NCBI RefSeq assembly: GCF_026151205.1
Contig: NC_087079.1
Span: 7,040,169-7,104,168 of the forward strand
Direction: 5' to 3'
Length of the DNA stretch: 64,000 bases
Origin: Bolinopsis microptera
Lineage: Eukaryota > Ctenophora > Tentaculata > Lobata > Bolinopsidae
In this document: one piece after another, positions 16,867-64,000 of the stretch
Position numbering within the stretch: the first letter of the stretch is position 1
Layout of the letters: every line of letters begins with the position of its first letter
Notes under the pieces: generated by a model
The model's input: the letters and a program-made list of their open reading frames with translations, nothing else
Databases searched by the model: none
What the model was told of the DNA's origin: nothing
Position numbers and translations under genes: made by a program

Positions 16867-16926
16867 ATGTCACAAGGTTATGGAGGAGAAGATAGGATTA
16901 TTGCATCAGATCCAGTATCATCTTAA
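16867..16926 (+). pseudogene. Helicase copy B, 5' fragment only
   Basis: ATG followed by codons for MSQGYGGEDRIIASDP matches the first residues of helicase A, preceded by the same leader, then diverges and stops at TAA after 19 residues. The rest of the gene is missing, so this is a truncated scrap. Confidence 0.85.
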
Positions 16927-17384
16927 GTTCTTTCTTATTATTATTTGAGAAGCTGAGTTTTTATTATATTTTTCATTTCTTAGAGAGTTAGATTATGGTA
17001 CCTGATAAAAGATGTTGATACTCGATATGTTAATTTTATCAGATAATACGGTAAGGTAATACAGCATAATTTGCTTTATCATTGTCTTATGATATTTGTT
17101 AAAAATCTTTAATATTTACACTGTTAATATGAGGTTTCCTCGCCGTCTTTATATTGTGATATACAATATTGTAAATAACTATATTAGAAACCCTTGTATG
17201 AACTTAACTTTGTATCAAATTTCCCCTGGTTTTATCTTTACCTCCCATTTGTTCATTGTTATCTTTAATCCTTAATTTGTGATTTCTTAATACGGATTCT
17301 GCAAATAACCTTTTGTCTTAAATTACATTTTTACGTAAAAAATAGGGTGACTGACAACCTCCCGCTTTTCATATCCCTTTACAA
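16927..17384. other. Spacer between helicase copies B and C
   Basis: No gene. It contains the flank block at about 17110-17270 shared with 12934-13100. Confidence 0.6.
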
Positions 17385-17456
17385 TAAAACCCTGATTTAC
17401 CGCTGAGTTTGGGGAAACATCCGCAGTAAATCGTGTTTTGGTAAATCGGGGTTTTA
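17385..17456. mobile_element. Short inverted-repeat element (72 bp), MITE-like
   Basis: TAAAACCCTGATTTACC at 17385-17401 and its inverted copy at 17440-17456 differ at one base. No target duplication could be confirmed, so a simple hairpin is an alternative. Confidence 0.5.
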
Positions 17457-17553
17457 CTGCACAATACAAATATCACAAAGTAATTACCAATTAACGACCC
17501 ATCTTACTTCAATAGTTATGTATCCAAAAGTGTAGGTATCGAGTGAATAAAAC

Positions 17554-18084
17554 ATGTCACAAAGTTATGAAGAAGAAGAAAGGATTCTTCCATCAGAACC
17601 GGGACCATCGACTAGAAAACGGATCTGTAACGTATGCAAAGGAAGAGGTCATTCTGTTGAAAAATGCCCGTTGGTAGTTAGATGGAAACATAAATATGAA
17701 CCACACCGAAGTAAAGCGACCATTGTTGTTCCTGTGATAGACACAACACCAGAGACATATTGCGAACAGGGATTGTCAGGTGGTGCTGTCGCAAAAGAAT
17801 GGGATAACTCTAACGGACCCTGTGTTGATGAACTTTGGGGAAATGAACCGGAGTTCCTGGTTCTTAACGAAGCTGATAAAATGCTAGACGATGTAGAAGA
17901 AAATGCTGAACTTACTGAAATGACAATAAAAATATACCACGAGACTCTCGTATTCAGTGCGAATTTCAGATCAGATCTAAAAGAATTACTCACTTTGGCA
18001 AAGCCAAATATGACACAGAGTTTTAAATTTGTAAAAATAGCTGCTCAAAAAAAAGGTTTGCTTAAACAAATTTTGTTGGCTATT
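17554..18084 (+). pseudogene. Helicase copy C, internally shuffled and interrupted
   Basis: It opens like helicase A, with an intact zinc knuckle (C-x2-C-x4-H-x4-C in CNVCKGRGHSVEKC). After about 70 residues it jumps to the normal C-terminal tail (GLSGGAVAKEWDNSNGPC then VDELWGNEP), then back to the middle of the first helicase lobe (EFLVLNEADKM). Walker A, the Q motif and APTREL are absent, DEAD has become NEAD and SAT has become SAN, so it cannot be an active ATPase. Homology stops at 18084 where a retrotransposon begins; the frame runs on to a stop at 18145-18147 inside the insert. The homologous sequence resumes at 20014. An in-frame shuffled protein might still be made, but pseudogene is the safer call. 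Confidence 0.85.
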
Positions 18085-21906: not shown

Positions 21907-23763
21907 GCGACTGTGCCTGAAATTTTGATAAAACGTCTCCAGACACATTATCTGATATGATAACAACTGATAAATTGTTTCCGAGCAACATTGATATTAG
22001 ATTATCATCATGTAATATCATGATTTTCATTCGTGGTTTATTCAATCTATTAAATTGGGTAGAAATTGCCAGTTATAATTTAGGCTCAAGCCTCTAATTC
22101 CAGAGAAGTTGATGAAGTAGTCATTTAGTATGATTATTGTTTGCTTTAATTTATTGTACATAATTGACTTGAAATTGACTATATTAGCCTAAATGGCTCC
22201 ATAAGCATTCTGTTTACCAGAAACAAGCTTTAAAACGAACTAGGAAAGAGCCTTAAGTCAGTGTACCAAAGTTTAAGTTTATTTCTCAATTCAAGCCCGA
22301 TTGAGTTCTGTTTGATATAAATTGATGATCAACATTCATTCGAGAAATATTTCAAAATAAACAATAATGATGTTCATTTTTTACGACTGAAGGTTCATTA
22401 TTGCATTTTTCTCTAAGAAATCCATCATAGTAAGTGATATCATAATTCACAGACGGATTCTTCAGCTGACAGCTCGTGTCACGTGTAAATCATATGATCT
22501 TAAGTAAAGTTCAAGTATCATAGCGTAAGTCCACCTGGAGCATGATGATAAGGGTCTAAATCCAGGTCACTTCAACTATGTTCTTGAAATTGCCTCTTCT
22601 TACTCAGTTGATAAATGTACGGTCTACAGAGTCTACTTTACTGGCTTCAAAAGAGCCCAAACTCTGTGCTCCACAAGGGACAGTTTACCTCATCTACTGT
22701 CATAACAGTATAATGTACTAATATATAACATGTATATTTGCAGACTCCTTCAATATTGAGCTGCCTGATAAGAGGTTTTGAAATATGCACATATAACCTA
22801 GCAGTGTGGTTGTGTGACCACGAATGAGCAAATACCCGGCGTTTCTAAGCTACCTGGGGAGGGAGCTTTTTGTTGTTGCATTATTTGGCACCATTCCCAC
22901 ACTTTTGGTAGTGAGGTCCTATGCGACATTGATCTGTAGCTTTAACAAGGTCAACAGTTAACACCTGCCTACGCCCTACATTAACACATCCGGTCTTGTG
23001 ATGACATGTCACAACACAGTTACCATTAATAGAATCAATCGGTGTACTCAAGTACTCAAAGTTCAATTCAGACCAATAAGTCGGCACTTACCTTACTGTA
23101 CATGTATCATGTGACTACATCCCTGGTCATTGATTGCAGGAATATTAGCTTGAGATTCATAGATATTTTACATCTGTAACTATAGTAACTAAGTATCTGT
23201 AACTAGAGTAACTGAGCAGATTAAATTAAATATTAGAAATATTCCGAAGATATTATTCTATTCCGTTGTTTTACAGTTTGTAGAGGAATGTTACTGTATC
23301 ACACATGAATCAGTGTGCGAGAGTATGTAAACAACTCATTTGTAAAGTTAATACTATGCTGTAACTATGCTGTAATTTAGTTATTTAAGTAACTTATTTA
23401 AGTAGCTTATCGAATAAAGAACTGCTGTTGTTAATTTCTTACAGTTATGATACGTTATGTTGACATAACCTGTTCGGATAACTCCCCCTCACATTTCTAT
23501 AAGCTGAGCGTTGTAAGAATCTCTGTTCGGCTAGCAAAGTAGCTGACATTATGCTATTATGCTATAATATGTACTATGTAAGCGCTGCTCTGCCAGCTGA
23601 ACAAAGGATAGAAAATCTGCTTTTCATTTTTCAGTTTCAATTGGTTATATCGTTGGTGATCCAATTTGCTCCCCGTATGGTCATGCTTTCATGTTTTTAT
23701 ACTGTCAGTGATGATAGATATTTGGTTTTTGCTATCTTGAAAGTTTTAATGTAAATTGCGCGT
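21907..23763. other. Spacer, duplicated 3' flank, no gene
   Basis: The 22185-22262 stretch matches 16679-16765 (3' flank of helicase A). A conspicuous phrase near 22835-22870 (TTTCTAAGCTACCTGGGGAG) looks like repeat debris, but I cannot assign it. Short open frames near 22881-23087 and 23551-23754 are not recognised. Confidence 0.55.
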
Positions 23764-24345
23764 TATAATTGTCACTGAATTTCTGTTTATTGCCAAGTTA
23801 GATTTTGGCATGAAACCATAGTATAGCCTCACAACAAATGTTGCACCCCGTGAATCTGTGTGCGTCAGCTGAGCATGCAAATAACTGATAAGGAAACTTG
23901 ATGATGCTGAATAATGTAATAACGTTGTGTATAACTGCATAATAACGAGTCATAGCGTGATGCAATTACGAATAATATGATGAATATTATCAGTCAAGTA
24001 TGTGTATGGGTTACCTGAGCATGTAAACTGTAAAGTGTAAACAACTTATTAGAAAACATAATAACGTGATGTAATTACGAATAATATAATGAATACATAA
24101 CAAAGTTATGTTTAACGAACGTTAATTGAGACGCTTAAAGTATTGTTGTTCATTTCTTATTATTTCATGTTAAGGTTATTTGACCTTATAAGATGATGTA
24201 TGCTGCCATAACATTCCAAGGTTAACTTCGTAACACAATACTGTAAGCTTTGTCTACATTCCCGTTTGGCTGGCAGAAGCGCTGGTAGTGTGCAGCGCGG
24301 CTCTTCTACAAAGCACAGCACAGATCACTTTGGTAGTATTCGAGT
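23764..24345. repeat. Duplicated 5'-flank block, copy 2 (upstream of helicase E)
   Basis: Near-identical partner of 12289-12855, with a few indels. Its position upstream of helicase E mirrors that of copy 1 upstream of helicase A. Confidence 0.85.
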
Positions 24346-24684
24346 ATACCGTATACGTTACTTACCTGTATTTGTTGCTTCGTATCAGTATTTGTTGCAT
24401 GTTGTATTGTCATGTAAATATCTACATTAATCGGGACCCCTTTTACTAATCTATGTAAGTTTGTATAATAAATAATTTATATTGTGTTCCCATGTCTTGA
24501 ACATTATTCTCTTTTATCCGTATTTACTACTTTGTGATTTGATTATATAAATTTTGCAAAAATTCTATCGTCTCAAATTACATCTTTACATACATAAATA
24601 ATAAATATAAAACAAGTTGAATATTATCATCTTACGACTCCTTCTAGACTATCTATTCTCCGTCCTTTTTATTTCAGCTTTTGT

Positions 24685-24811
24685 ATACCTTACTCGGGAA
24701 TATTATGACTGGGATAAAGTGGTGGGTTTTGGAAAATTCCGCCATATTTTTCCCGGTCATTAATTTTCCCAGTCATAAATTAACCCGCTATAATATTCCC
24801 GAGTAAGGTAT
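24685..24811. mobile_element. 127-bp MITE-like hairpin element
   Basis: The arms 24685-24706 and 24790-24811 are perfect 22-base inverted repeats (starting ATACCTTACTCGGGAATATT). Inside them GACTGGGA and TCCCAGTC form a further inverted pair. TA at both outer ends would fit a Tc1/mariner-type TA target duplication. There is no coding capacity. Confidence 0.75.
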
Positions 24812-25158
24812 GTGCCTTAATCGATGTATTTTCTTTCGCTGGATTGTGCCACTTCTCGTAATGGTTGATAGACATAACTAATGCCAAAATGTCTCTTATT
24901 TTACAAAGTATTGTACTTAGTTTATATTTGGCGAATCAGTGCTGTTCCGTGAACCCTTCCGCTTTGTCAAACTCTTCTTTGTTGCAGGACATTTCCGATA
25001 GTCGCCGGTTCATCTTTTGGGAGCTGGTTTGTGACTACAAAAGTCACGTGATCAAACAGCATACAATAGTTATACTATGTAAATGTCACGAATTATTAAC
25101 CGATTAATAACCAACCAACTTACAGGTAGTTATATAAAACTATAGGCGTCGAGTAAAT
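24812..25158. other. Upstream region of helicase E
   Basis: Contains a TCACGTGA E-box near 25043 and the conserved leader ACTATAG|GCGTCGAGT just before the ATG at 25159. An open frame at 24865-25107 starts with a hydrophobic stretch but is not recognised. Confidence 0.45.
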
Positions 25159-25866
25159 ATGTCAAATCGTTATGGAGAAAAAGACAGAATTCCTCCAGAA
25201 GAGACGTTGCCGGTACCACAATCATCGAGATCATCGAGAAAATCGTCAAGAAAATACCAAAGATGTGAACAATGCGATCAAAAAGGTCATTCTCTTGACG
25301 AATGTTTGTTGGTAGTTAAAACAATGAACAGCTACGAAACCGACCGAAGCAAAGCGAAGATAAATTTTGAACTCCATAAATTCGTGCGTGTGCCAGTCAC
25401 AACGCTAAGTCCTATGTGCGAAGACTGCAAGACTCGTCAAACTCAACAAAAAATGGACGGGATTGGAGCGGCAGAAATTTATGGTGAACGTAAAGAATGC
25501 TCATGTTTCAAACTGGTAAAAGTTTTACCCAAAACCGAGCCAATTAAAGAATTCGGCGAACTCAATCTCGATAAACAGGTGCAATTAAACATTGTCGGTA
25601 AGACTCAGTGTGGCTTCAAAGTGCCCACCCCGATCCAACGATATGCCTTACCCATTATTATCGAAGGATTTGATGTAATGGGCTGTGCTCAAACAGGAAC
25701 CGGAAAGACTGCAGCATACCTTATTCCAATGATAAAGTTTGTAAAAGACAAAGGCTTCAAAAAGAAAAGGGTAGGATGGGATGAACCTCAGAAGCCAGAA
25801 GTTCTGATAATCGCTCCTACTCGTGAATTAGCCCAACAGATTCACGCTGATGCAATAAAGCTCCGT
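25159..25866 (+). CDS. Vasa/PL10-like DEAD-box helicase, copy E (cut by assembly gap)
   Basis: Intact 5' end of a helicase related to copy A. A zinc knuckle CEQCDQKGHSLDEC lies near residues 35-50, a second Cys cluster (CEDC ... CSC) follows, then the Q motif region ending VPTPIQ, Walker A AQTGTGKT and APTREL. The frame is open into the N run, where the remaining two-thirds of the gene would lie. It is well diverged from copy A in the N-terminus but nearly identical over the core, so it is an older paralogue under constraint or one homogenised by conversion. After the gap only satellite is present, so the 3' part is missing from the assembly or the contig end is misplaced. Confidence 0.88.
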
Positions 25867-25966
25867 NNNNNNNNNNNNNNNNNNNNNNNNNNNNNNNNNN
25901 NNNNNNNNNNNNNNNNNNNNNNNNNNNNNNNNNNNNNNNNNNNNNNNNNNNNNNNNNNNNNNNNNN
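25867..25966. other. Assembly gap, 100 N
   Basis: Exactly 100 undetermined bases joining a helicase coding sequence to a satellite array. Confidence 0.99.
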
Positions 25967-26503
25967 GTGATACCCTAGTGTCTAGGTATTAGTGTACCCT
26001 AGTATCTAGGTATTAGTGTACCCTAGTATCTAGGTATTAGTGTACCCTAGTATCTAGGTATTAGTGTACCCTAGTATCTAGGTATTAGTGTACCCTAGTA
26101 TCTAGGTATTAGTGTACCCTAGTATCTAGGTATTAGTGTACCCTAGTATCTAGGTATTAGTGTACCCTAGTATCTAGGTATTAGTGTACCCTAGTATCTA
26201 GGTATTAGTGTACCCTAGTATCTAGGTATTAGTGTACCCTAGTATCTAGGTATTAGTGTACCCTAGTATCTAGGTATTAGTGTACCCTAGTATCTAGGTA
26301 TTAGTGTACCCTAGTATCTAGGTATTAAGGTATTAGTGTACCCTAGTATCTAGGTATTAGTGTACCCTAGTATCTAGGTATTGGTGTACCCTAGTATCTA
26401 GGTATTAGTGTACCCTAGTATCTAGGTATTAGTGTACCCTAGTATCTAGGTATTAGTGTACCCTAGTATCTAGGTATTAGTGTACCCTAGTATCTAGGTA
26501 TTG
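25967..26503. repeat. 24-bp satellite array, copy 2
   Basis: About 22 copies of the same 24-base unit found at 6036-6655, in the same orientation, with one irregular insertion near 26325-26335. The array starts directly at the gap, so its real length is unknown. Confidence 0.95.
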
Positions 26504-47317: not shown

Positions 47318-48770
47318 ATGGCTTCCCTAATACTCTCTGAATCTATGATACTCGAGTTCGAGCGAATCAAAAATTCACTAAACGCGATCGTATCAGAGTT
47401 TGATTTCGATACTAAGCTGCTGGGTAAGCCTCGCACGGCCGCCCTGCTGGGATCAGCTCAGTACGAGCCCAGCATCGTCCTCTCACCTACCAGCGATGAT
47501 ATCAATACTTTCTCTCCTGATCTCTCTTTCCCTGATATCCGCAAGAGGAAGAAGAGTTCGGACCACAATGATAGACTGTACAAATCGGAGAACGATATTA
47601 ATAAACTGTTTGAGATTCTGAGTTTGAAGAATAAAGCAGAGGAGTTGAAGAGTGGGAAGTTGAACCGGTACAGTTTAGGAAGTCAGCTCCAGTTTAACGA
47701 TCTTAACTCCTCATCTGATACCTTCGTGTCGGAGGGAAGTATTGGTTCCTTTACTTCTCAGCCGAATATCACAGACGAGGATAGAGTTGATGATACCCCA
47801 ACTCCCCAAAACAATGGAGGATTGCTGGAGGACGATCACGAGGACAATTATACTAATGACTCTCATATTAATGACTATAATAACTCAAATGTAAATAATT
47901 CTAATGAGGACAATACGGCGGTCAATAATTCTGACGGAACAGTTAACTCCTCCGGAGAGACTATCATCCCAGTAGATCAGGAGTATGACACAACCTTCGT
48001 GTTAGGTAGACTATCCGAACAGTTCCCAGATAAGTGCGGTATTGAAACTGAGGAGGAGAGTCTACATAACAAAAGTGCTGCCAGCCAGTGTGATTTCAGT
48101 GAGGAGTCCGACCAGGAGGAGTATGTTGAACCACCTCTAATCTTGCTGGATGGGAACTGTTCTGACACCTTGGAGACCGGACTGAGGAACCTCACTCTGA
48201 AACCGGAGGACATGTCCTTCCGTTCCAAGGCTAAGATGTTCGAGGTGTTCCAGGTAGATGGAGTGACTTACAAACGTCTTAAGAAAAAGGCAAGTTCAAC
48301 AGGTGACCTGGAAGACCGTCCAGCCTCTCCGGGAGAAGTTGAAATTGATAGCGCTCTTGTTGAACTTGACAAGGTTCTTGTTGAGGAATCTGCTCAGGAG
48401 ATTTGTGTTGAATACCACGACACAGAAGAGGAAGATGAACCCTTTATACTGCCTGAATCTCTAAACGCTGATATGGCTCGCGCTAGAAAACGCAAAAAAG
48501 TGAGGATCAAGCCGTCCCAGTGCTACATCCGTCACCCTTCAACTGTTATGGAGGAAGGGAACTATCCCTACATCTTGTGTCCAAAGCACTTACAGGACGG
48601 TGGTATGTCTGCTACGGTAGAGAACAATTGTCCGCAGTGTACAGATAATGCTGCTGCTGAGTTCGGAATATGGCCTCTAGTGAATGTGATGGAACAAGCA
48701 CGGGGCTCCACTGGGTTCCTGTGTGGACTGAGGGGGAGTAGTCTTAGTCTGGCTGATAGCTACTATCAAG
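47318..48770 (+). CDS. ctnnd: Catenin large acidic exon (alternative first coding exon?)
   Basis: 484 codons from ATG at 47318 to a donor CAAG|GTAGAA, phase 1 out, joining in frame to 48936. The protein is acidic with Asn/Asp/Ser-rich tracts. It has a basic patch (ARKRKKVRIK) that could be a nuclear signal and a Cys/His group (CYIRH ... LCPKH ... NNCPQC) that might bind zinc. No known domain is recognised. TAA at 47315-47317 lies directly before the ATG, and an acceptor (TTTCGCAG) lies at 47257-47264. Splicing in from exon 4 (phase 1) would reach TAG within about ten codons. The frame is therefore most simply the first coding exon of an alternative transcript, with 47265-47317 as 5' leader. 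The length and downstream phases argue that it is real. Confidence 0.72.
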
Positions 48771-48935: not shown

Positions 48936-49018
48936 CTCTGTCTCCGCAACCGTGTCCCCAATCTAGAGGGTATGCGTCCTCTATGCCCTTCCTGGACGCT
49001 GAACACTATGTGGATAAG
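48936..49018 (+). CDS. ctnnd: Catenin small exon (after the 47-kb exon)
   Basis: 83 bases between TTATTTCAG and AAG|GTAAAT, phase 1 in and phase 0 out. It reads ALSPQPCPQSRGYASSMPFL then DAEHYVDK. Exact phase continuity with its neighbours supports it. Confidence 0.72.
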
Positions 49019-49266: not shown

Positions 49267-49393
49267 AGAACGGGCCTGTCCCACTCTCCAATGAGCGAAT
49301 GTTCCAGAACCACGAATACCTCCCGGATCAGCCTTGCGAAACGAGCGATACACAACTCTCACCGTCACAACTCGGACGACCAGAGCCAACATG
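49267..49393 (+). CDS. ctnnd: Catenin small exon (Ser/His-rich linker)
   Basis: 127 bases between CCCTCACAG and CATG|GTGAGT, phase 0 in and phase 1 out. It reads RTGLSHSPMSECSRTTNTSR and on to ..HRHNSDDQSQH. It leads directly into the first Arm exon at 52121, which needs the same phase. The Ser/Thr/Arg-rich sequence suits a phosphorylated linker. Confidence 0.75.
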
Positions 49394-52120: not shown

Positions 52121-52262
52121 GTTCCTCCCACCAGGACCACATAGACCTGTCCCACATAATGCAGATACTAACCACCTCCACCAACGGTAAACTCCTCAGC
52201 ACTGCAGCTGGGTGTCTTCAACACATGGCTTACAACCACGACCATATGAAAGGGAGAATCAG
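52121..52262 (+). CDS. ctnnd: Catenin Arm exon (first Armadillo repeat)
   Basis: 142 bases, phase 1 in and phase 2 out, between CCCCCCAG and CAG|GTGGGT. It reads ..DLSHIMQILTTSTNGKLL then STAAGCLQHMAYNHDHMKGRI. This matches the start of the p120-family Arm domain, where the vertebrate pattern is a helix followed by SNAAAYLQHLCYRND and K.. at the same spacing. Arm repeats of this family bind the juxtamembrane region of cadherins. The family assignment is secure; the exact paralogue (p120, delta-catenin or ARVCF type) is not. Confidence 0.92.
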
Positions 52263-52837: not shown

Positions 52838-52955
52838 GGATGTTGGTGGGATCCCCATCCTAGTTAGACTCCTGCAAGCAGAGGAGGAGGTTAGTCTCTC
52901 CGCTCTGGGTGCTCTCAGGAACCTGTCCTTCGGTCAGCAGAACAACATCAACAAG
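52838..52955 (+). CDS. ctnnd: Catenin Arm exon (second Armadillo repeat)
   Basis: 118 bases, phase 2 in and phase 0 out. It reads DVGGIPILVRLLQAEEEVSL then SALGALRNLSFGQQNNINK. It matches the family pattern G.P.LV.LL....EV...A.GAL.N.SFG....NK very closely. The donor AAG|GTTCGT is weak, which may allow regulated splicing at this point. In frame the natural continuation is the exon at 63565, which starts IAIKDAHGVP, giving the NK-IAIK junction typical of the family. Confidence 0.93.
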
Positions 52956-53597
52956 GTTCGTTGGAATCTTAATTTTTTAAATCTTTTCTATATTGATATC
53001 TTTTAAATATCTATAAGGAATGTGTTTTGAATTGATTTCAGGAATGATACAAGCCTAAATAGCAAATTTTCGTTGTTAACTTTTTAAAATAGTTCTTTCG
53101 TAGCGCGAACATGGTATGGTTATTAAACTTTACAAAAATTCTCCGACAAACATAATGAATTTTGTTTTTCTACGATCGCATCGATATTCGATAGGTTCAC
53201 TGTTTATGGTAACCACAATAACAATAAACCGGCGTATGTCCGGCTGCTTGTTAATAAGTGTCAGGTCTTGTCACCTCTGTGCGGTGTCAGTCAGTCTCTT
53301 CCATAGTGTGTATTAGGCGGGATCACATGCCCATCTCTATTGGCATGATGCCAGCTTGGTATGATCACGTGACTATGTTATAGGACCTTGATCTGCTCGC
53401 TAAATTGAGCTATCTGTTAAATGGGATCTCAATTAGAGAAGGTGATCTGCTATATGAGAACTGTGATTAACATGCTGCAAGTATAAAAACCAGAAACACT
53501 TTCATCGAATTATCATTCATTCGATATTACATCTTCTATCTTAACAACTAAAATAGTGTGAACAACTAACTACAACAACATCTCTTATCTTAACAAC
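52956..53597 (+). promoter_or_regulatory. Probable promoter and 5' UTR of the nested homeobox gene
   Basis: TATAAAAA occurs near 53483, about 115 bases before the homeobox ATG, in a position that would set transcription start near 53510. A TCACGTGA E-box lies near 53365. The leader between the two has repeated TTAACAAC and ACAACTA phrases. The assignment is by position only. Confidence 0.45.
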
Positions 53598-54455
53598 ATG
53601 AGTTCTTTCGAAGAGTACCTGAACAACTTATTTAGTCTGTCAACTCCTCCACCCAACCATCTCCCTAACTATCCTACACCAGTTTATCCTACACCAGTGT
53701 ATCCTACACCAGTGTATCCTACACCAGTGTGTCCTACACCTACATACCCTGTACCTTCTTACCCTACATCTTATCACTCTCTTGGATATTCCTACCTTTC
53801 TCCTGGATCCTACTATCCTGGTTCCTACCTAACTTTACCAGCTGAGACCCCCTACCAATACAGCATCAGCCCAGAGATTACCCCTCTGAAACCACCCAGC
53901 CCTTCAACCAGTCAGTACTGTAGTTTCTCCTCCACCAACACTTCCACTCTGGAGACACCTACCTTCACACCGGAACCTGTAGCTACCTCCACTCCTGCAT
54001 TTCCTCTGTCACCTAATCACGTCACCCCGCCCCCGACTCCAGGAAAACAGCAGATTAGCTCACCTCCCCGCTTCTTCTTCCCTCCAGACTTCTCCCTCCC
54101 AAACAGTGGTAACACGGAGGAAGTGCCCAGTGGAGCCCCACTCAGCAAACAGACCCCCTCCTCGTTCGGTAAAACTCAGAGACGGAGACGACACAGAACA
54201 AAGTTTACCATCTGCCAGACGTCCGCCCTTGAAGCTGAGTTCAGCGTCTGTTCCTATATCTCGGCTGAAAGGAGGAGAGAACTCTCGGAGGTACTGGGGA
54301 TTAAGGAGCTTACTATTAGAGTGTGGTTTCAGAACAGACGGACCCAGGAGAAGAAGAAGGAGAACAATCGTCCTACACACTCATCCTACACACCTAGTCC
54401 TACACACTCATCCTACACACCTAGTCCTACACATCTCTCCGGCTGGTCGTCATGA
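53598..54455 (+). CDS. Homeobox transcription factor, single exon, nested in the catenin intron
   Basis: 285 codons without an intron. Residues 1-195 are Pro/Ser/Tyr-rich, with five repeats of the form YPTPV near residues 25-45, a likely activation or interaction region. The homeodomain is residues 196-255 (54183-54362) and has R5, F8, L16, F20, Y25, W48, F49, Q50, N51 and R53, so DNA binding should be intact. Helix 3 reads ELTIRVWFQNRRTQEKKK. The RVWF.NRR..EKK pattern and the ALE..F..C of helix 1 recall POU homeodomains, but there is no POU-specific domain and residue 50 is Gln, not Cys. Family assignment is therefore open. The C-terminus repeats HSSYTPSPT. A TATA-like box at about 53483 and AATAAA at about 54546 frame a compact gene of about 1 kb on the same strand as its host. 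Confidence 0.92.
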   Translation: MSSFEEYLNNLFSLSTPPPNHLPNYPTPVYPTPVYPTPVYPTPVCPTPTYPVPSYPTSYHSLGYSYLSPGSYYPGSYLTLPAETPYQYSISPEITPLKPPSPSTSQYCSFSSTNTSTLETPTFTPEPVATSTPAFPLSPNHVTPPPTPGKQQISSPPRFFFPPDFSLPNSGNTEEVPSGAPLSKQTPSSFGKTQRRRRHRTKFTICQTSALEAEFSVCSYISAERRRELSEVLGIKELTIRVWFQNRRTQEKKKENNRPTHSSYTPSPTHSSYTPSPTHLSGWSS

Positions 54456-54545
54456 ACCAATATTGTGTAATTTTGGGATATATTGCGTGGATATTAAATG
54501 TTGAATCTTTATTTTATATTGGTGAATCAAGTTAACATATTGAAT

Positions 54546-54551
54546 TAATAA
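54546..54551 (+). terminator. Putative poly(A) signal of the homeobox gene
   Basis: AATAAA within GAATTAATAAATGTC, about 90 bases after the stop codon. Confidence 0.6.
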
Positions 54552-55494
54552 ATGTCATAATTTGTCATAAAGTGCAAGTCTCGCCATGGAGCCTCCAGCC
54601 TCATTACAGTAAGTTTCGCTTGACAAGTAATCCCCGACCTCATGACGTCACAACTCAAATACTCTCTCAGCTAATGGAGTTTCTAAGACTTTGTAGCACA
54701 ACATGACATCACCAGAGCCATTAGATAATGTCTTGCAACTGTGGATCCTTCCAGTGCCACTTGATGGTATTTTAGCGTGTTACAAATTGTTGGCATGCCA
54801 GACATCTATTATATTGTTTGTTTCGTGTGGAATTTAGCTCTATTTTCCGTGTTGTTTGTACTTATGATTTTAAGTTTAGATCAGAGTTCAAGTGAATTAA
54901 TTTTGTTAGTTCTTTGAGATAATATCTCGTAATCACTTTCCCCATTTGTAGATTTGTGTATATTTGCGTAATTATATCAGAACTTCCTCCCCCTCTGCGA
55001 TTACGTAACATGCGAACGGCCTATTTCCTCTTCGCTCTAATTGATACACCTGCATAAGATATTTGTAATAGCTTATTCGATTGTAAGGGCACGGGATCTC
55101 ATTATTGCCACAAAGAGATTACGTAGTCAAGGATCCCCTATTGCTCAACATCTTCCAAAATACTTCAATATAGCTGCAAAAATATATGACGTAATATTAG
55201 TTTTTATAACTCTGATACCTACACGTATTCATTCCACCACTCTCTCTCTCTCTCTTTTGCTTCCCGAAATAGCGTATCTTGCGATTATAGCTGAGATAAT
55301 GACACATAATTATCTCATTATGTCATTATCTCCAACTCTCTTACAGATAGCTAGTTGCTCCAGACTTAGCATCTGTCTTGTGTGTGTTTTATGTTGTTCT
55401 TTGTGTAGTGTGTGTGTACGCCTCTTAGAGTTCTTGTAAAATATCAGTTACATTGCGGAGGTTACTGTTCTCTTTCCGTCGTTCTAATCTATAA
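54552..55494. other. No gene recognised
   Basis: Intronic DNA between the homeobox gene and the 17-bp array; a (CT)n stretch lies near 55240. The open frame at 55041-55439 is not recognised. Confidence 0.5.
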
Positions 55495-56661
55495 CAGCCA
55501 CTGCGAAACAGCATCCACTGTGAAACAGCAGCCACTGTGAAACAGCAGCCACTGTGAAACAGCAGCCACTGTGAAACAGCAGTCACTGTGAAACAGCAGC
55601 CACTGTGAAACAGCAGCCACTGTGAAACAGCAGCCACTGTGAAACAGCAGCCACTGTGAAACAGCAGCCACTGCGAAACAGCAGCCACTGTGAAACAGCA
55701 GCCACTGCGAAACAGCAGCCACTGCGAAACAGCAGCCACTGCGAAACAGCAGCCACTGCGAAACAGCAGCCACTGCGAAACAGCAGCCACTGCGAAACAG
55801 CAGCCACTGCGAAACAGCAGCCACTGCGAAACAGCAGCCACTGCGAAACAGCAGCCACTGCGAAACAGCAGCCACTGCGAAACAGCAGCCACTGCGAAAC
55901 GGCAGCCACTGCGAAACGGCAGCCACTGCGAAACAGCAGCCACCGCGAAACAGCAGCCACCGCGAAACAGCAGCCACCGCGAAACAGCAGCCACCGCGAA
56001 ACAGCAGCCACCGCGAAACAGCAGCCACCGCGAAACAGCAGCCACCGCGAAACAGCAGCCACCGCGAAACAGCAGCCACTGCGAAACAGCAGCCACTGCG
56101 AAACAGCAGCCACTGCGAAACAGCAGCCACTGCGAAACAGCAGCCACTGCGAAACAGCAGCCACCGCGAAACAGCAGCCACCGCGAAACAGCAGCCACCG
56201 CGAAACAGCAGCCACCGCGAAACAGCAGCCACCGCGAAACAGCAGCCACCGCGAAACAGCAGCCACCGCGAAACAGCAGCCACCGCGAAACAGCAGCCAC
56301 CGCGAAACAGCAGCCACCGCGAAACAGCAGCCACCGCGAAACAGCAGCCACCGCGAAACAGCAGCCACCGCGAAACAGCAGCCACCGCGAAACAGCAGCC
56401 ACCGCGAAACAGCAGCCACCGCGAAACAGCAGCCACCGCGAAACAGCAGCCACCGCGAAACAGCAGCCACCGCGAAACAGCAGCCACCGCGAAACAGCAG
56501 CCACCGCGAAACAGCAGCCACCGCGAAACAGCAGCCACCGCGAAACAGCAGCCACCGCGAAACAGCAGCCACCGCGAAACAGCAGCCACCGCGAAACAGC
56601 AGCCACCGTGAAACAGCAGCCACCGTGAAACAGCAGCCACCGTGAAACAGCAGCCACTGTG
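55495..56661. repeat. 17-bp CpG-rich minisatellite, about 68 units
   Basis: The unit CAGCAGCCACCGCGAAA is repeated about 68 times with essentially no indels. Variants are C/T or G/A changes at its two CpG sites (CCGCG, CTGCG, CTGTG, CCGTG) and are grouped in blocks along the array. Because 17 is not divisible by three and the unit has no stop in any frame, long open frames of a 17-residue repeat occur on both strands. They are artefacts of the repeat. Confidence 0.96.
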
Positions 56662-57868
56662 TGTTATCGTTTACATTCCATTCTCCAATCTTTTCAGCGT
56701 ACTTTGTCCGGTGTGCTTGCTACATATTTGGTTGGAACTACATCCTTTCAGCACATTTCATGCTTGTCCCCCTTAGTCTGCTAATTAGCCCCCGTTTCAA
56801 CCCCGCCTGCATCATTCAGCACCATTCAGCACCCCTATATTACACGTACTGTTCTCTATTCTTGTATGTGTTATTCCAGTGCCTCATCCGTCCACTAAAC
56901 ATTCCACCCGGCCTAAACATTATAAACATATCCGAACGATACATGATGTATATTCTATTCTTATACAAATCAAATTCCACTGACTACTCCACATTCCTCA
57001 ATGTCCTGCCATGCCCCTCTGATCAGATTATCCTCATTACCATAACCTCTCTCTCGCCTTCTCACTCTCTCACTCTCTCTCTCTAGTGCTTCTAGTGTAG
57101 GATCTGAGATTTGAAATGCTGTTACTTCAAATCCGATTAGTTCTCCGGTCTCATTTTCTCTGCATGTTCCGGTGAATTTGTTGTCAGATTTGTAGCTACT
57201 ACTTTCATTGTGCCCGCTTATTATTATTGTTTAGTTGCTTATTTTTATCCGTTGACCCGTTTTTAAAACCTCGTGTTTATTTTAATTTCTCTGTTTTGTA
57301 ATATAACTCTCGTGATCATTAAGGTCTGCACATTCTTTTCCCATGCATTAAGCCATGCTCATGGTTCCTAGTTGGCACAAAATCAGGACATTTGGTGATG
57401 ATGAGTTCACTTAGTACAGATGATCTAGCCAGATAAGTAGACTTTAAACGATGTCATATTATTTGGAATACCTCCCCACAATACTGTTACTTAAGTAAAC
57501 ATGTTTTTTTACACGATGTTATTTACATTTTACACACCAAGTTGGCATGCCAACTGCCACCAACCTCTCACATCTTCTTCCTAATTAGGCCCTCCTACAT
57601 TGTTTAGATTTTTGTGAGTTCTGAATTTCTTACAGTGGGTCGTTTGCGGCCGCTTTAGTCAATTTGTGCCATTTTTCATCGTATTTTGTCCGTGATCACC
57701 TGATTTTGGCTGTTGTGCTCGCTTCTGAGCTCAAGCAGGAATTTAACAGGAATTCCGAATTAAGCAGGAATTTAACATGAAACTGTCCGATGGAACAATT
57801 TAATTGAAGTTGTCTAGACTAAATATACAACATCTGTAATGTGTATAGTAGTGTACGCCACTTGTAAT
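56662..57868. other. No gene recognised
   Basis: Intronic sequence with a (CT)n stretch near 57050-57085 and phrases such as GCAGGAATTTAAC repeated near 57735-57775. No coding signal. Confidence 0.5.
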
Positions 57869-57894
57869 GGGGGGGGGGGGGGGGGGGGGGGGGG
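57869..57894. repeat. Poly-G run of 26
   Basis: Twenty-six consecutive G, the same length as the run at 6656-6681; here not next to a satellite. Confidence 0.95.
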
Positions 57895-60456
57895 TATCAT
57901 GCACTTAGTAATGGACGTGACGTTGGGGTGACGGGTCAGATATGTTGAAATATGGCGAAATCTGTACGCCATTTTCCGTCCTCTGACCCCCAGACTAATG
58001 CGCTAATATAACTCCACATCACGGCATTACACATACCTGATAATCTTAAATACTGATAATCTGAAATACCTGATAATCTGAAATTACACATACCTGATGT
58101 TAATATGTACCCCACTATCTCTGCAACTGCATATTATCATAAAACTGGCTACATTCCAATCCCATCCTGGTTCTCACCCCCATTGGCTGCCCCTCCCCAC
58201 CTGACCCCCTCCCTGCTTCCTGATTGGTGCTCACACTGCAGTGACGTCACGACACTGGGGGCAGCGTAACGTGATATCCGTTATCCAGCCTGGCTTTCTG
58301 TTGATTTTAATGAAAAGCCAGCTGGTCGCTGTTATCCTCAGTTTCTTGTATCGGTTAGTCTATTTCTTTCTTTCTAATCAGGCTGCAACTGTTTTATCGG
58401 GTGTTCGTTTTATAGATAAGCTGTGTTTGCAGACTGCAAGAGTGATGGGTATTTATCGAGGGTTATTTGTAGATTTAATATGAACTGCTACTCTAAATTC
58501 ATAATCTTTACCTATTTTGTGGATAGCATATTATATTGATTTGATTTGTCTGGTGGTTGATAGTTTTATTTTAGTAACTGCCATCTTGGATCAGCTACTT
58601 CTCGCCCGTCGCGTCGGTAAACTTCTTGCTTGAGTGAAACTGTTTAATTTGGAAACTTGGAGCCGTTCTTTGTTAGATAAGGCACCAATCACCAAGCGGA
58701 AAATGTTCATAGTTACGTTCATGTACTACCCACCTCTCTGCATTGCACAGTTCATTATGTTGCGTTATTCTGTCTAGCTAATTGAAAAGTAGAGATAAGC
58801 GACTGCAGCTCACGCCTCACAGTGCACTAACTGAAGACGATACTCGTATATAGTATGACAAACAATCTAATAATAGATTTTTAGAAATGGAAAATTTATT
58901 CTCTTAAAACTAGGCGTGGTATCACTGGTAAAAGGCTAGAGCAGCTGTTGTCCCAGCTGAACAACGTTACCACCCTCACATTACGTAAGTGAGTGAGTGC
59001 CCTGCACATTGACGCAGTCACAGAGTACCTCATTGTTTCATCTTCTTTCTTCTTTCTACCTTATATGTGGGGCGTGGCGACCTCCCTTGCAGAGAACCTG
59101 CGCTCTGTAGCTGCTTTTTGCATTTTCTATTCGCTAAATTGGCTGTAGTTTGTAATACTCTGCAGTCTGCTATATGTTCATTATATGCAAGCCTCTTGAT
59201 TTATAACGACCCACAAGATCATTATCCCGGGAAGCAGTGAGTAAACACTTCCTCTGTACAATTCAACAAATTACATTATTTATGAAGGAGCACAGTATTG
59301 CTGGGGCACTCAAAAGCAGCTTCACCCCTTCTTCACTTCTTCAAGCTCTTAACATTGCTAAATAACCAGTCTGTGATAGTCGCTAAATGTAACCACTCTC
59401 TGCAGTTCTCATTTCTCCGTGATACTACAACATCTCCTCACCAGATGTTGAACCACCTGTTCGCTCTATTCTAAACAGCCTCTCCTCGCTAACTCCAAGT
59501 TCCCTTTGTCTGCTCTGGTTAAGTCCCATTACAGTACCAGGTAATTCCAAGTATAAGACCACTCACAATCCACAGCAGGGTTCTTGTGTTCTCGTGATAA
59601 TTACCCAGCTTAGCACCTCTCTACTCCGACTGGTTAGTCTTATGGTTAATGATCTTTCTTGTGGCTGGTTAATGGCCTTTCTTCGTCCCCTGGACTTCAT
59701 GATATGCATGTCTCCTCCGCCTCATCACAGAACAAACAACACACTATACAATATACACTATACAATATACAATAGACATTGTACATTGTACATTGTACAT
59801 TGTACATGTTACTGTTAACGGTAATTCAGCTACACACCAACCCCCCAATTAGCAGCTCGTCCCTCCAACCACATCACTATTATATGCAGGAAACTTATAG
59901 TAACTATAGTGTGTAACTACAGTGTGTAATTAGATTACGACAATGCTAGAAAGTTCCATGATAGCCTACATGGCGTCTCCCTGACTGCCCTCTCCCCCTT
60001 TACCTTCCCTGAATAACGTTGGTAATGCATTGCTGTAGTGTTGCTGCTTCCCATGTTGCATCAGTAAGTGCTGGCTCTAACTTTAAGATAGATTATAGAG
60101 GCTGTATAATCATTATCATCATATCATTACTGCTCATCTTTCTTAGAAAGCCAGTTTCTGGTTCGTTTGGATCCGGTTCGTTTGGATCCGGCTCAGTCTT
60201 GTTGTACTGCAGTTGTAGCTGATCACTGATCGGTAGTTGTAGTGATCTAAGGTAGTAGGGACGATTGACGAAGTTCCTTTTTTCCATTTGATTGGATCAC
60301 GCTTCATTTGATCTAATAAACAGTGACAGATCTTGAAATGTCTTCTTTTCTGATAACATTATCTGATCACTTGATTATTATCACATACTCTGCTCCTTCT
60401 GCTCGCAATATAGTCTATCATATTGCATTTTGTTTTATTTCGCAAACCATCAACCT
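57895..60456. other. No gene recognised
   Basis: Intronic DNA. Small repeats: CTGATAATCTGAAAT phrases near 58035-58085, ATTGTAC tandem units near 59775-59810 beside ACTATACAATATAC, and GGTTCGTTTGGATCCG near 60158-60190. Confidence 0.5.
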
Positions 60457-60528
60457 TATCACGTGACTAAGCATTGTCACGTGACTAAACCTTGTCACGT
60501 GACTAAACCTTGTCACGTGATTAAACCT
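60457..60528. promoter_or_regulatory. Tandem E-box array, four 18-bp units
   Basis: Four units of TGTCACGTGACTAAACCT (first unit TATCACGTGACTAAGCAT, last with GATT), each centred on the palindrome TCACGTGA. Three of the four contain the full GTCACGTGA core of the motif bound by TFEB/MITF-type bHLH-Zip factors. Clustered identical sites in the catenin intron, about 6 kb after the homeobox gene and 1.8 kb before the 62-kb exon, could act as an enhancer, or could simply be a minisatellite. Confidence 0.55.
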
Positions 60529-62249
60529 TGATCAATCGTTTAGCCCACAGCTTACTATAAACTCATACTGATCAGTACAGAGCGAATGATGATATAAAAG
60601 CTATTAATAGCCACACATAACTTTAATCGATGATTTTAGATATGCGTTATATTTGTTTGTCTCGTTCATATTCGTATCAGATATTCGGTGATGCTATGGA
60701 ACTTGTCTCCATTCCAGGACTACAAGGATTAGGGGGGTGCATGGTAACCGGTTATATGAGGACGTGACCATGGTGACGAGTGATGCTATCTGGTTCACGT
60801 CTGTAACATCAGGTGGCGATATGTCATTCCATTCATTCTCCAGCCTCATAAGGATCATATATAAGCACATTAAAAATACGGATAGTATACGTAATCTGAT
60901 CTATCAGAATATAATGGTTACATTGCAGCTCACTGCCCACTGAGACACTACACATCTGGCCACGTGCCAAGTTATTGACCAGTCAGAAGCAAGGATGTTG
61001 CCCACGTGACTCTTTGTTGACCACGTGACTGTTTCACAAACCAGGCACCTGGGAAGAAGGGTCTCGTGTTACACTACCTTTTGTGTGCTTTATTAGTTTT
61101 ACTGTGCCTTCAATATATTGTACTGCTCTGCTGTCTTTATTGTGAGAATGTGCTTTAGGTTAATCAGGATTTAATGCTCGCATATTAGGATCCATACGCC
61201 TGCCTGAAATGTAATGAATTCCATTCATCCCACTCTCCCCACATGAATAGTCACATACCTCCCTCATACTCCCATTACATATAGCTCCGGATAATGTACA
61301 ATCACACAGGAAGATGGGTAATTACACTGACTAGCCGGTCTCAACTCACACAGGAAACTAGTTATATTATAACTTTTTGTAGTACACTCATGTCTGTGTC
61401 AAGGTGCTCAATCAACTAAAACAAACACTTTTCTAATCGAACTATTTGAGTTGTACATTAGCCAGTTTCTATTTGTTCACATATTTACGAGTGCTATGAA
61501 CTCACACTAATGCATCTTTCTCTATTACTATACTATTTTCTATTTTATACTCTAGCTTTCCATTCGATACTTTGTAACGTCTCGTTAGGTCAGATGACAG
61601 ATCAAGTGTAATTGGTCTATAATTATGTGAAATTGATCTATAATTATGTGTAATTGGTCTATAATTATGTGAAATTGATCTATAATTATGTGAAATTGAT
61701 CTATAATTATGTGTAATTGGTCTATAATTATGTGTAACGATAGTTTACAGTCTACCTAGCCTCCTCTAACTGGCTCATTGTTTGTGTTGTAGACAGTCTA
61801 TAATTAGCGCTTTGTTTAACTCATACCTACGCTGTTCTATTTCTAGTGTTGTGGTTGTTACTGTGTTCAGCTTGTGGTGTATAATATACACTTAGTTTTT
61901 ACTTTTTGTTTTGTTTGTTACAGTGCAGTTAGTTGGTTACTGTTGTTTATGTCGATTATGATTATACCATTTACGGCTTGGTTGAACCTAGTTGCGATTT
62001 AAGCGAGTAAGCCCGATCTTTTAGGAATATATTCCAAACCAATGTTGCTCATGTCATTAAGAGTAGGGGCCATTGAAACATTTTAAAATACTTTGTGATC
62101 GGACTATTGAAGATATGGTGTGACTTTTGGCCCATACTGTAGTTAAAAATATGCTGATTGTTGATAGTGATCACTTTACCTTTGTTGTTGCGATTGGTCA
62201 GTTTTTTTTTATCAAATCTGTTAAAATATAACCCTTATCTTGTTTATAG
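60529..62249. other. Region upstream of the 62-kb exon
   Basis: AT-rich DNA with further CACGTG sites near 60959, 61000 and 61018 and the 21-bp repeat below. If the 62-kb exon is a first exon, its promoter should lie here. No TATA box was identified. The acceptor-like TTGTTTATAG ends at 62249. Confidence 0.45.
61606..61731. repeat. Six copies of a 21-bp unit
   Basis: GTGTAATTGGTCTATAATTA plus T and the variant GTGAAATTGATCTATAATTA plus T alternate over six exact 21-base units. Confidence 0.95.
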
Positions 62250-62278
62250 CGCTAAGAGCAGGAAATTCACAAAATGTG

Positions 62279-63244
62279 ATGTTGATAAAATCTGACACAA
62301 AAGAAGCCGAATTAAACCGTCTCCTGTCAGACCTCTCCACCCCATGCCTGACAGACAATGTAGTCCTGGGTACCTCTACTTCTAATATTGAAGAAGAGTT
62401 AGGGGACGAGGTGATAGAAAGCCCTGTTGACGAGGTGGCTGTAGCCATGTCAGGTGATGAGGGTGTTACTGAAGGTGATGGTGGTGTTACTGAAGGTGAT
62501 GTTGACATGTTGCCGGATGGAGGTGACGCTCTGGAAGTAGCCAGCACGGTTGCCAGCACTATTCACAGCCCTGAAGAGTACCTGGTGACGGACAGCAGCG
62601 ACTACATGGATAGTATAGACGGGGAGGACATGTCCACCCACCCTGTAACCGTATCAGAGATATCCCCCCAAACTTACCTCACCATCAACACTCCGCCCCA
62701 GACCAGTGGAGAAGCAACACTGCCTGATGATGTGGACGATATGGGTGATCATATCTACGTTAACAGGCACATGGTGCCTATTGACGCTAACACGGGAGAT
62801 GTGGATCTGGATGCCTGTCCCACTATATCTGATATTAATCCTACCCCTCCTACTACCCCTCCCGGGCCCGCTGGGGATAATCTGTACGAGAACCTTCCTG
62901 AGGAAATACCTCCTGATTCTAATGATTTATACGAGAACCTCCCAACAAACGACCTATCAACAAACAGTCCTAGCTTGGTTCTGGAACCAGCAGTGGTTGA
63001 CGAGGATATGGTAGAAGGGTACCACTCACCAGCCTCGCCCTTCTCAATGACTCTAGCTGCTGATGACGAGTTTACGGACCCGAGCATTGCTTTGTTGGAG
63101 ATGAGTAATTTGGAGGAGAGGGATGATTTGTTAGAAGACAAGTTAAAGCCTGATGTGGAGAGTTTGAGGCGGCGGTTGTGGTTTTATCTGAGGCAAGATG
63201 TCAGGCGGCAAAATATCAAGTTTTGTTACGATCTGCTCGATAAT
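62279..63244 (+). CDS. ctnnd: Catenin large acidic exon inside the Arm region, with YxN motifs
   Basis: 322 codons from ATG at 62279, very acidic, ending ..CYDLLDN at the donor AAT|GTGAGT (phase 0), which joins in frame to IAIKDAHGVP at 63565. It carries three Tyr-x-Asn motifs (IYVNR at Tyr160, LYENL at Tyr203 and Tyr218 counted from this ATG). Phosphorylated YxN is the known binding motif of the Grb2 SH2 domain, so a signalling role is plausible; that is inference. The previous Arm exon ends in phase 0, and splicing it to the acceptor at 62249 reads one codon and then TAA. The frame therefore needs its own start, or a small unseen exon. Candidates are an alternative first exon giving a catenin lacking the first two Arm repeats, or an exon that ends translation early. 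Confidence 0.7.
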
Positions 63245-63564
63245 GTGAGTAACCTGGTAACCTGGTAACCTGGTAACCTGGCGAGCCCTGAGTTTGCCCT
63301 TTTATCTAATATAAACGTTTTTACGCGAAATTAATCATCAAATATTTCGGCTCACAGTTCTGATCTTGGAACCTCAACTGTATATGCCACGACCGCGACT
63401 GAATTATCAGAAACACTACGACATTTACTGTAATTGGAGTTAAAAGTCTCGAAAAAGTTAGAAAGTCGCGCGTTGACGGTGTGTATCATTCCTGCTCCAT
63501 AAATTATAACTAGGAGTTGTAGAGTATTAATTAAGGAGTATCTCTTAATGGGTTATATTTACAG

Positions 63565-63633
63565 ATCGCAATTAAAGATGCGCACGGTGTTCCACTCCTA
63601 GTCCAACTTCTGAAAACGTCAGAAAACTTCGAG
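63565..63633 (+). CDS. ctnnd: Catenin Arm exon (third repeat, first half)
   Basis: 69 bases, phase 0 on both sides, between TATTTACAG and GAG|GTTTGT. It reads IAIKDAHGVPLLVQLLKTSE then NFE, the close equivalent of IAIKN..GVP.LV.LL.. in p120-family proteins. Confidence 0.93.
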
Positions 63634-63807: not shown

Positions 63808-64000
63808 ATCCAGGAACTTATCACAGGCGTGTTCTGGAATTTGTCCAGCTCCGAACAAGTGAAACCGCAACTCTTACGACAAGCTCTAGAATCTATTGTT
63901 AAGAGCATCATCATACCTCAATCCGGTTGGAAAGGAAGTCAGATAATGCACGATTTAACGAGCGAGATCCAATGTACCACAGTCTTCAGGAATGCCACCG
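63808..64000 (+). CDS. ctnnd: Catenin Arm exon (runs off the window)
   Basis: It starts after TTATTTTCAG in phase 0 and is open to the window end. It reads IQELITGVFWNLSSSEQVKP and later SIIIPQSGWKG and ..TVFRNAT. The ITG..WNLSS and IIP.SGW signatures are diagnostic of the p120/plakophilin group, and the overall match favours p120/delta-catenin over plakophilin. The IIP.SGW stretch lies in the long loop that interrupts the Arm repeats of this family. Remaining Arm repeats and the C-terminus must lie beyond 64000. Confidence 0.94.
   Translation, partial: MQELITGVFWNLSSSEQVKPQLLRQALESIVKSIIIPQSGWKGSQIMHDLTSEIQCTTVFRNAT

What the first reader, a model, noticed from the sequence alone, without database searches (positions are those of the whole stretch)
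62250..63633. A 322-codon acidic exon sits exactly at the NK|IAIK junction of the Arm domain
The Arm exons at 52955 (phase 0, ..NINK) and 63565 (phase 0, IAIK..) fit together perfectly without it. The exon between them splices out in phase 0 to IAIK, but entry from NINK gives Lys-Arg-stop. It must have its own promoter and start (giving a catenin without the first two Arm repeats), be a regulated poison exon, or be preceded by an unseen microexon. I know of no such exon at this place in p120-family genes.
Basis: partly seen in the sequence, partly recalled or inferred. Interest (0 to 1): 0.85.

Follow-up and report, generated by a model that had tools for sequence, protein, structure and literature searches.

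The report
Alternative exon splitting a p120 catenin
An animal gene for a cell-adhesion protein of the p120-catenin family carries an extra protein-coding exon, found at the same place in a second such gene of this genome, that would swap the start of the protein, including a part expected to grip cadherins, for a different front end; no RNA evidence could be checked.

Summary
A 995-nt coding exon (62250-63244; 322 codons from its ATG) lies in the 10.6-kb intron between Arm exons ending NINK and starting IAIK. It leaves in phase 0 into IAIK; entry from NINK gives K-R-stop.

One other p120-family gene was found, 0.73 Mb away (47-70% identity in the Arm exons compared). It has a large open exon at the same junction. 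Only the last ~50 residues of the two exons are alike (40%), and the likeness ends exactly at both donors. Among same-strand ORFs in the two introns (80 and 54) no other pair matched. The exon most simply predates the duplication and is very probably spliced into the Arm domain; a poison exon or nested gene is unlikely.

I favour an own start. Either way the lysine matching human K401, needed for E-cadherin binding, is lost. No RNA was available; the species (a ctenophore, perhaps Bolinopsis microptera) is inferred.

The parts
62250..63244 (+). alternative coding exon (genome C8:7102418-7103412): phase 1 in, phase 0 out; in-frame ATG at 62279
   Evidence: coding composition; counterpart in the paralogue
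62248..62249 (+). acceptor AG (ccttatcttgtttatag); either cis acceptor for a phase-1 donor or candidate spliced-leader trans-splice acceptor
   Evidence: 3.5 bits; 21 of 591 intron AGs, itself included, score at least as high
62279..63244 (+). 322 codons from the exon's own first in-frame ATG (MLIKSDTKEAEL..LLDN)
62756..62941 (+). three Tyr-x-Asn motifs (YVNR, YENL, YENL), possible Grb2-type SH2 docking sites (inference, motif recalled); 3 of 9 tyrosines, shuffle p 0.009, two of them in a short tandem repeat; not enriched in the paralogue (p 0.25)
63077..63244 (+). conserved C-terminal segment (..LEERDDLLEDKLKPDVESLRRRLWFYLRQDVRRQNIKFCYDLLDN), predicted helix, ends at the donor
   Evidence: 40% identity to the paralogue; helix
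63245..63250 (+). donor GTGAGT, phase 0; without splicing the frame stops at 63266-63268 after VSNLVTW
   Evidence: (2 of 612 intron GTs, itself included, score at least as high)
63565..63633 (+). common downstream Arm exon (IAIKDAHGVPLLVQLLKTSENFE), phase 0 both ends; a PF00514 repeat begins 4 residues before it
63808..64000 (+). next common Arm exon (IQELITGVFWNLSSS..), continues past the window (locus L002)
52121..52262 (+). first Arm exon of the main form (phase 1 in, 2 out); holds the Lys aligned to human p120 K401
   Evidence: K401 role PMC4996431 (passages)
52838..52955 (+). second Arm exon of the main form (..NINK), phase 0 out; absent from the alternative form
49267..49393 (+). upstream catenin exon with a phase-1 donor that can join 62250 in frame (DDQSQH|ALRAGN)
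48936..49018 (+). upstream catenin exon, phase 0 out; joining it to 62250 gives stops
   Evidence: likely homologue in the paralogue at L009 8212 (17 residues, 71%, E 0.011)
47318..48770 (+). proposed first coding exon of the main form (484 aa, MASLILSESM..), phase 1 out, also frame-compatible with 62250; its start is a model

Best explanation
The exon is a functional alternative 5' coding exon of a p120-family catenin gene. Transcripts that use it begin inside or near the 10.6-kb intron, get their 5' end at the acceptor before 62250 (quite possibly from a trans-spliced leader), start translation at ATG 62279, and are spliced from 63244 to 63565. The product has a long disordered acidic front and a helix of about 45 residues that runs into the Arm domain at the boundary before the repeat starting NINK/IAIK and stands in for the missing repeats. 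It lacks the usual N-terminal region and the first Arm repeats, including the lysine matching human K401, so it should not bind cadherin in the usual way and should act as a cytoplasmic or signalling catenin, or compete for partners of the rest of the Arm domain. Shown by computation: the exon, its phases, its coding character, its counterpart in the paralogue and the exact end of similarity at both donors. Inferred: transcription, own start, trans-splicing, the cap role of the helix, loss of cadherin binding.
For: Frame and donor. Coding signal. The other p120-family gene found has a large open exon at the same junction; the last 60 residues align with score 94 against a maximum of 46 in 500 shuffles, while the rest of the exons is no better than shuffled. 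Of 80 window-intron and 54 paralogue-intron same-strand ORFs of 30 aa or more, this is the only pair alike at E 0.01. Third codon positions differ more (0.62) than first (0.42) or second (0.40) over 53 codons. C-terminal segment predicted helical. For an own start: the paralogue's ORF opens with ATG 7474 in context GGGAGCATGG (A at -3, G at +4), and the best acceptor between L005 7380 and 7700 scores only 0.1 bits. For trans-splicing: six 22-nt matches (1-3 mismatches) to the end of the Hormiphora leader plus GT lie within 83 kb on C13; the two read in full align along nearly all of the printed leader and are followed by a GTA donor. The leader was on 56% of Hormiphora Iso-Seq reads, given as a lower bound (PMC8527503, section 37 read). 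K401.
Against: No RNA was available. The exon's own ATG context is only fair (G at -3, T at +4). The phase-1 entry also fits two upstream donors. No promoter was looked for by tool. Genome-wide the paralogue's exon is a modest match (E 0.005 one way; 0.07 the other way, next to a chance-level C7 hit at 0.16): the homology rests on its position and on the shuffle test. The leader pattern at up to 3 mismatches has 43 matches in the genome against 20 for the reversed control, and 12 of the 43 are one tandem array; only the C13 cluster speaks for leaders. Acidity and Tyr-x-Asn enrichment are not shared by the paralogue. The AlphaFold models are weak: best mean pLDDT 40 for the whole exon; for the 56-residue segment with two sequences 74 in the best of five models and 45-66 in the others. 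The genome's identity as a ctenophore is inferred; the 18S search did not complete.
Confidence: 0.6

Rival explanations
1. Mutually exclusive cassette: donor 49393 (or 48770) splices to 62250, skipping exons 52121-52262 and 52838-52955, so the N-terminal region is kept and only the first Arm repeats are exchanged for the 331-residue segment.
For: 49393 and 48770 are phase 1 and the joined frame has no stop (2 of 5 upstream donors tested). The exon pair it would replace is also phase 1 in, phase 0 out: 260 nt and 995 nt leave the same frame. Acceptor score 3.5 lies within the range of the six main acceptors (0.4-6.8).
Against: A phase match has one chance in three per donor. In the paralogue the best acceptor near the start of the open frame is weak (0.1 bits, though also phase 1) and the frame opens with a well-placed ATG. 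The splice would leap 12.9 kb over two Arm exons.
Confidence: 0.25
2. Regulated poison exon: inclusion after 52955 gives Lys-Arg-stop and destroys the message.
For: 52955 to 62250 reads K-R-stop.
Against: A poison exon needs no open frame, yet 331 codons are open, have coding composition, and the last ~50 residues are conserved in the paralogue in the frame that continues into Arm.
Confidence: 0.04
3. Separate nested gene whose last exon ends at the stop 63266-63268, unrelated to the catenin.
For: The frame runs past the donor for seven codons to a stop; an intronless homeobox ORF sits in the same intron; nested genes are common in Hormiphora (PMC8527503, passages).
Against: Similarity to the paralogue ends exactly at the donors of both exons; past the donor one reads VSNLVTW-stop, the other a GTCT repeat. 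A counterpart at the same junction of the other p120-family gene found needs linkage to the host.
Confidence: 0.05
4. Decayed relic: an ancestral alternative exon no longer used in this copy.
For: Most of the exon is unalignable to the paralogue.
Against: Open frame, intact donor and coding composition in each of the ten 180-nt windows tested along the exon.
Confidence: 0.06

Closest known systems
Vertebrate p120-catenin (CTNND1) isoforms 1-4, alternative N-terminal starts
   Same: One gene gives catenins with different N-terminal ends feeding one Arm domain; isoform choice changes regulation (PMC7372553, PMC3353978, PMC3013132: passages seen).
   Different: Known starts are at residues 1, 55, 102 and 324 (PMC7372553) and the isoforms share the central Arm domain (PMC3353978). 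Here the alternative end replaces the first Arm repeats and brings its own coding sequence.
p120 K401M, cadherin-uncoupled mutant
   Same: The alternative form lacks the residue aligned to K401, whose change stops E-cadherin binding and sends p120 to the cytoplasm (PMC4996431, passages; alignment).
   Different: K401M is an engineered point change; this would be a natural isoform lacking whole repeats.
Second p120-family gene of this genome (C8:6.36-6.376 Mb)
   Same: Same junction, large alternative exon, phase-0 donor, conserved C-terminal helix segment.
   Different: 736-codon open frame, near-neutral charge, no counterpart of the nested homeobox gene among the 54 intron ORFs compared.
Ctenophore p120 (Mnemiopsis)
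   Same: p120 with a conserved cadherin-binding surface, bound by Ml-CDH in yeast two-hybrid (PMC13245172, passages).
   Different: That paper reports a single p120 homologue, and its main text has 'splic' once and 'isoform' and 'exon' not at all; two p120-type genes with alternative exons were found here.

Membership tests
p120/delta-catenin family (host gene) | Arm repeats (PF00514) | tested here: met
   62 bits against a cutoff of 20.6, E 4e-17, two stretches
p120/delta-catenin family (host gene) | closest natural solved structure is a p120-family member rather than beta-catenin | tested here: met
   3l6x catenin delta-1 4.9e-28, plakophilin-2 2.3e-19 and plakophilin-1 1.6e-18, against 3.5e-10 for the best beta-catenin; one designed Arm protein scores higher (1.7e-34), other designed ones, ODA-docking and Vac8 Arm proteins lie between
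p120/delta-catenin family (host gene) | phylogenetic placement in the p120 clade | not tested
   no tree was built
p120/delta-catenin family (alternative isoform) | complete Arm domain with the K401-type cadherin contact | tested here: not met
   the alternative form starts its Arm domain at IAIK; K401 aligns into skipped exon 52121-52262
alternative first exon | own transcription or trans-splice start and start codon in the exon | tested here: inconclusive
   ATG 62279 and paralogue ATG 7474 are present; no RNA
mutually exclusive exon | frame-equivalent to the exon(s) it replaces | tested here: met
   49393|62250 and 63244|63565 open with no stop
mutually exclusive exon | never included together with the alternatives in RNA | not testable with these tools
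   no transcript data held
poison exon | inclusion introduces a premature stop | tested here: met
   from 52955 and 49018, R-stop; but the exon is coding and conserved in the frame into IAIK, which a poison exon does not need
nested intronic gene | independent of host splicing | tested here: inconclusive
   conservation ends at the host-directed donor in both paralogues, which speaks against it; no RNA

The most novel reading that the evidence does not exclude
In this ctenophore-like animal the p120-catenin genes carry, since before their duplication, an intragenic, leader-trans-spliced start that makes a second class of catenin: no usual N-terminal region, no first Arm repeats, a dedicated helical cap on the truncated Arm solenoid, and a long disordered front that docks signalling proteins. 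One locus would thus make an adhesion catenin and a cadherin-free signalling catenin by choice of start.
Probability: 0.3. Interest if true: 0.7.

Novelty: new variant of a known kind. Interest (0 to 1): 0.52.

Why it matters
p120 isoforms described in the passages read differ in their N-terminal starts and in exons 11, 18 and 20 but share the Arm domain (PMC7372553, PMC3353978). An exon that exchanges the first repeats for another coding segment, kept in both p120-type genes found in one genome, would be a natural switch between cadherin-bound and cadherin-free catenin. If the animal is a ctenophore, it bears on how adhesion and signalling roles of catenins were divided near the base of animals. 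It could be tested with Iso-Seq data of the kind that PMC10232365 says was made for Bolinopsis.

Tried and rejected
Domain searches of the exon: no Pfam family for the whole exon or the paralogue's exon; the 56-residue segment alone gives DUF7602 at E 0.026, 14.9 bits against a cutoff of 27, not taken as real. PDB searches gave no hit better than E 0.058 (four capsid chains; eight chains, interleukin-3 first). Similarity of the exon to the gene's own long N-terminal exon: none (best E 0.37).

Acidity as the conserved feature: rejected, the paralogue's exon is near neutral. Tyr-x-Asn docking motifs as the conserved feature: three in each exon, but not significant in the paralogue (p 0.25), so kept only as a possibility. 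The local alignment that extends into the YENL region is not supported: the part before the last 60 residues scores 48 against 200 shuffles with mean 45 and maximum 68.

dS was very high (1.7 to 2.8) or undefined in these comparisons, so dN/dS is not used; codon-position differences are given instead. Splice scores use weight matrices from recalled consensus frequencies and only rank sites; the entry phase of the paralogue's site was worked out by hand from its offset, because the script's phase column was faulty. DNA comparison of the two host introns gave one 26-bp opposite-strand match (88%, E 0.005) and two matches at E 0.68, not followed up. A first attempt at exon joins used some ends off by one and was corrected. 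The homeobox ORF was scored one base out of frame; that score is not used. The repeated 22-mer ATTAAACTATTTAATTTGAGGT (17 places, 8 exact, 0 in the reversed control) shares longer flanks in the two copies read (L036, L039), like a dispersed repeat, so I do not call it the leader. The Hox test used one Antennapedia homeodomain: 8 matches at E 1e-6 or better, identity 42-55%; it suggests but does not prove absence of Hox genes. Species: 264.65 Mb fits Bolinopsis microptera (265 Mb, 346 scaffolds in PMC11797021, passage), but the held genome has 232 contigs and the 18S search did not complete.

Paper searches behind 'not described': (p120 with invertebrate, Nematostella, splicing, alternative promoter or first exon, armadillo repeat, ctenophore terms). 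Nothing like this exon was seen in the listings or in the passages read; subscription journals are mostly not held. Papers: PMC3013132, PMC3141441, PMC13245172, PMC4996431, PMC7372553, PMC3353978, PMC10232365 and PMC11797021 seen as passages; PMC8527503 as passages and section 37; the rest as search listings only. The 3l6x construct numbering (chain position 83 = residue 401) rests on recall of the construct's start (residue 324 after five tag residues).

Full report
1. What is there. The window is C8:7040169-7104168 of a 264.65-Mb genome in 232 contigs. A p120-family catenin gene runs along the + strand: modelled exons 47318-48770, 48936-49018, 49267-49393, 52121-52262, 52838-52955, 63565-63633 and 63808-64000 read through without a stop and continue downstream in L002. 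The Arm part matches PF00514, and its best natural solved relative is catenin delta-1 (5.9e-37 with the first repeat included). In the 10.6-kb intron between 52955 and 63565 lies the exon of the finding, 62250-63244. A PF00514 repeat begins 4 residues before the junction (residue 36 of the query), so the junction falls practically on a repeat boundary.

2. More than chance. The frame is open for 347 codons from stop to stop. In frame, codon log-odds is +0.23 per codon against -0.44 +/- 0.09 in 71 intron windows and below zero in the other five frames; the synonymous part alone does not separate it. The donor is one of 2 of 612 intron GTs with so high a score, the acceptor one of 21 of 591 AGs.

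3. The second copy. A search of the genome with the exon scored two candidates: itself and C8:6368383-6368529, E 0.005, 45% identity, covering only the C-terminal end. That place lies inside another p120-family gene, 0.73 Mb upstream on the same strand: Arm exons from L005 3116 and 3471 (47 and 51% identity), a 736-codon open frame ending ..VERRLLFYFKQLKNVKYCYDIVEK before a GTGTGT donor at 9628, and then the exon IAIQDAHGITLLVQLLNTTESFE at 9863. So the large exon sits at the same junction, leaves in the same phase and meets the same partner exon. The last 60 residues align with score 94 (500 shuffles: mean 23, maximum 46); the rest does not align (48 against 200 shuffles with mean 45, maximum 68). 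In the 56-column alignment 21 columns are identical. Among 80 ORFs of at least 30 aa in one intron and 54 in the other, same strand, only this pair matches at E 0.01. The reciprocal search with the paralogue's exon returns itself, the window's exon at only E 0.07, and a C7 hit at E 0.16; so the claim of homology rests on shared position and the shuffle test rather than on genome-wide E-values. A search with the Arm sequence finds p120-type exons at these two loci, plus weaker matches on C3 (E 1e-4, 31% over one 182-aa frame) and C13 (E 0.14) that I did not examine; the tool calls its counts lower bounds. Both p120-type genes found thus carry the exon, and it most simply predates their duplication. 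The similarity stops at the donors: beyond them one frame reads VSNLVTW-stop and the other a GTCT microsatellite. That is the best evidence that both exons are spliced onward into the Arm domain.

4. How it is entered. (a) Donors 49393 and 48770 are phase 1; joining either to 62250 is open throughout (2 of 5 donors tested). The exon is thus interchangeable in frame with the pair 52121-52262 plus 52838-52955. (b) The genome appears to trans-splice leaders. A 22-nt pattern from the end of the Hormiphora leader plus GT, at up to 3 mismatches, has 43 matches against 20 for the reversed control, and 12 of the 43 form one tandem array on C8; but six lie within 83 kb on C13, and the two of these read in full align along nearly the whole printed leader and are followed by a GTA donor. 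An acceptor with no partner upstream is what a trans-spliced intragenic transcript would show. (c) The paralogue's open frame has no good acceptor near its 5' end (best 0.1 bits between 7380 and 7700, also phase 1) but starts with an ATG in a good context. I therefore favour an own start (about 0.6 for the full account) over mutual exclusion (0.25). That the exon is used and spliced to 63565 by one route or the other I hold at about 0.85.

5. What it would do. Both routes give an Arm domain that starts at IAIK. The lysine aligned to human K401 is in exon 52121-52262 (HMKGRIR, numbering partly recalled); the paralogue has a lysine in the same column (LMKNKI). In mouse ES cells K401M p120 does not bind E-cadherin and sits in the cytoplasm (PMC4996431, passages). 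So the predicted product is cadherin-uncoupled. The conserved tail is predicted as one helix running to the junction (residues 287-330 of the exon, block means of pLDDT 45-59; 56-residue segment with its paralogue, mean 74 in the best of five models, 45-66 in the others) and would cap the truncated solenoid in place of the lost repeats; this step is inference from weak models. Most of the rest is modelled without regular structure (a short helix at 18-27 and three short strand assignments aside, all at low confidence) and diverges freely, as linkers and docking regions do. Three Tyr-x-Asn motifs in the acidic part could bind Grb2-type SH2 domains (recalled motif), but this feature is not significant in the paralogue.

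6. The animal. I infer a ctenophore, perhaps B. microptera; this is not proved. PMC13245172 reports one p120 homologue in Mnemiopsis (passages); two p120-type genes here would be an addition if the species is right.

7. Against known isoforms. The p120 isoforms described in the passages read differ by N-terminal start (residues 1, 55, 102, 324) and by exons 11, 18 and 20 (PMC7372553) and share the central Arm domain (PMC3353978). An exon replacing the first repeats was not seen in six paper searches. It is a new variant of a known kind (alternative N-terminal exon of a p120-family gene), not a new kind of system.

Noticed in passing
53598-54455: Intronless homeobox ORF (MSSFEEYLNN.., PF00046 E 1e-18) nested on the same strand in the same catenin intron; no counterpart among the 54 ORFs compared in the paralogue's intron.
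   Followed up: partly
G000:C8:6.359-6.376 Mb (L005, L006): Second p120-family catenin gene on the same chromosome and strand, 0.73 Mb away; several of its Arm exons read open.
   Followed up: yes
14094-25992: Several long open frames with DEAD-box helicase motifs and a Cys-rich knuckle (recalled resemblance to vasa/PL10, no family search run), some partial; looks like a local duplication array.
   Followed up: no
55495-56650: Minisatellite of a 17-bp unit (GCAGCCACYGCGAAACA) open in several frames on both strands; its long ORFs are an artefact of the repeat.
   Followed up: no
G000:C13:12811466-12894453: Cluster of six sequences resembling the end of the ctenophore trans-spliced leader; the two read in full are followed by a GTA donor.
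   Followed up: partly
G000:C8:7889746-7895419: Twelve copies of one 22-mer mostly 513 bp apart: a long-period tandem array.
   Followed up: no
L005 9628-9775: The donor of the paralogue's alternative exon runs straight into a (GTCT)n microsatellite that fills much of the 235-bp intron.
   Followed up: no
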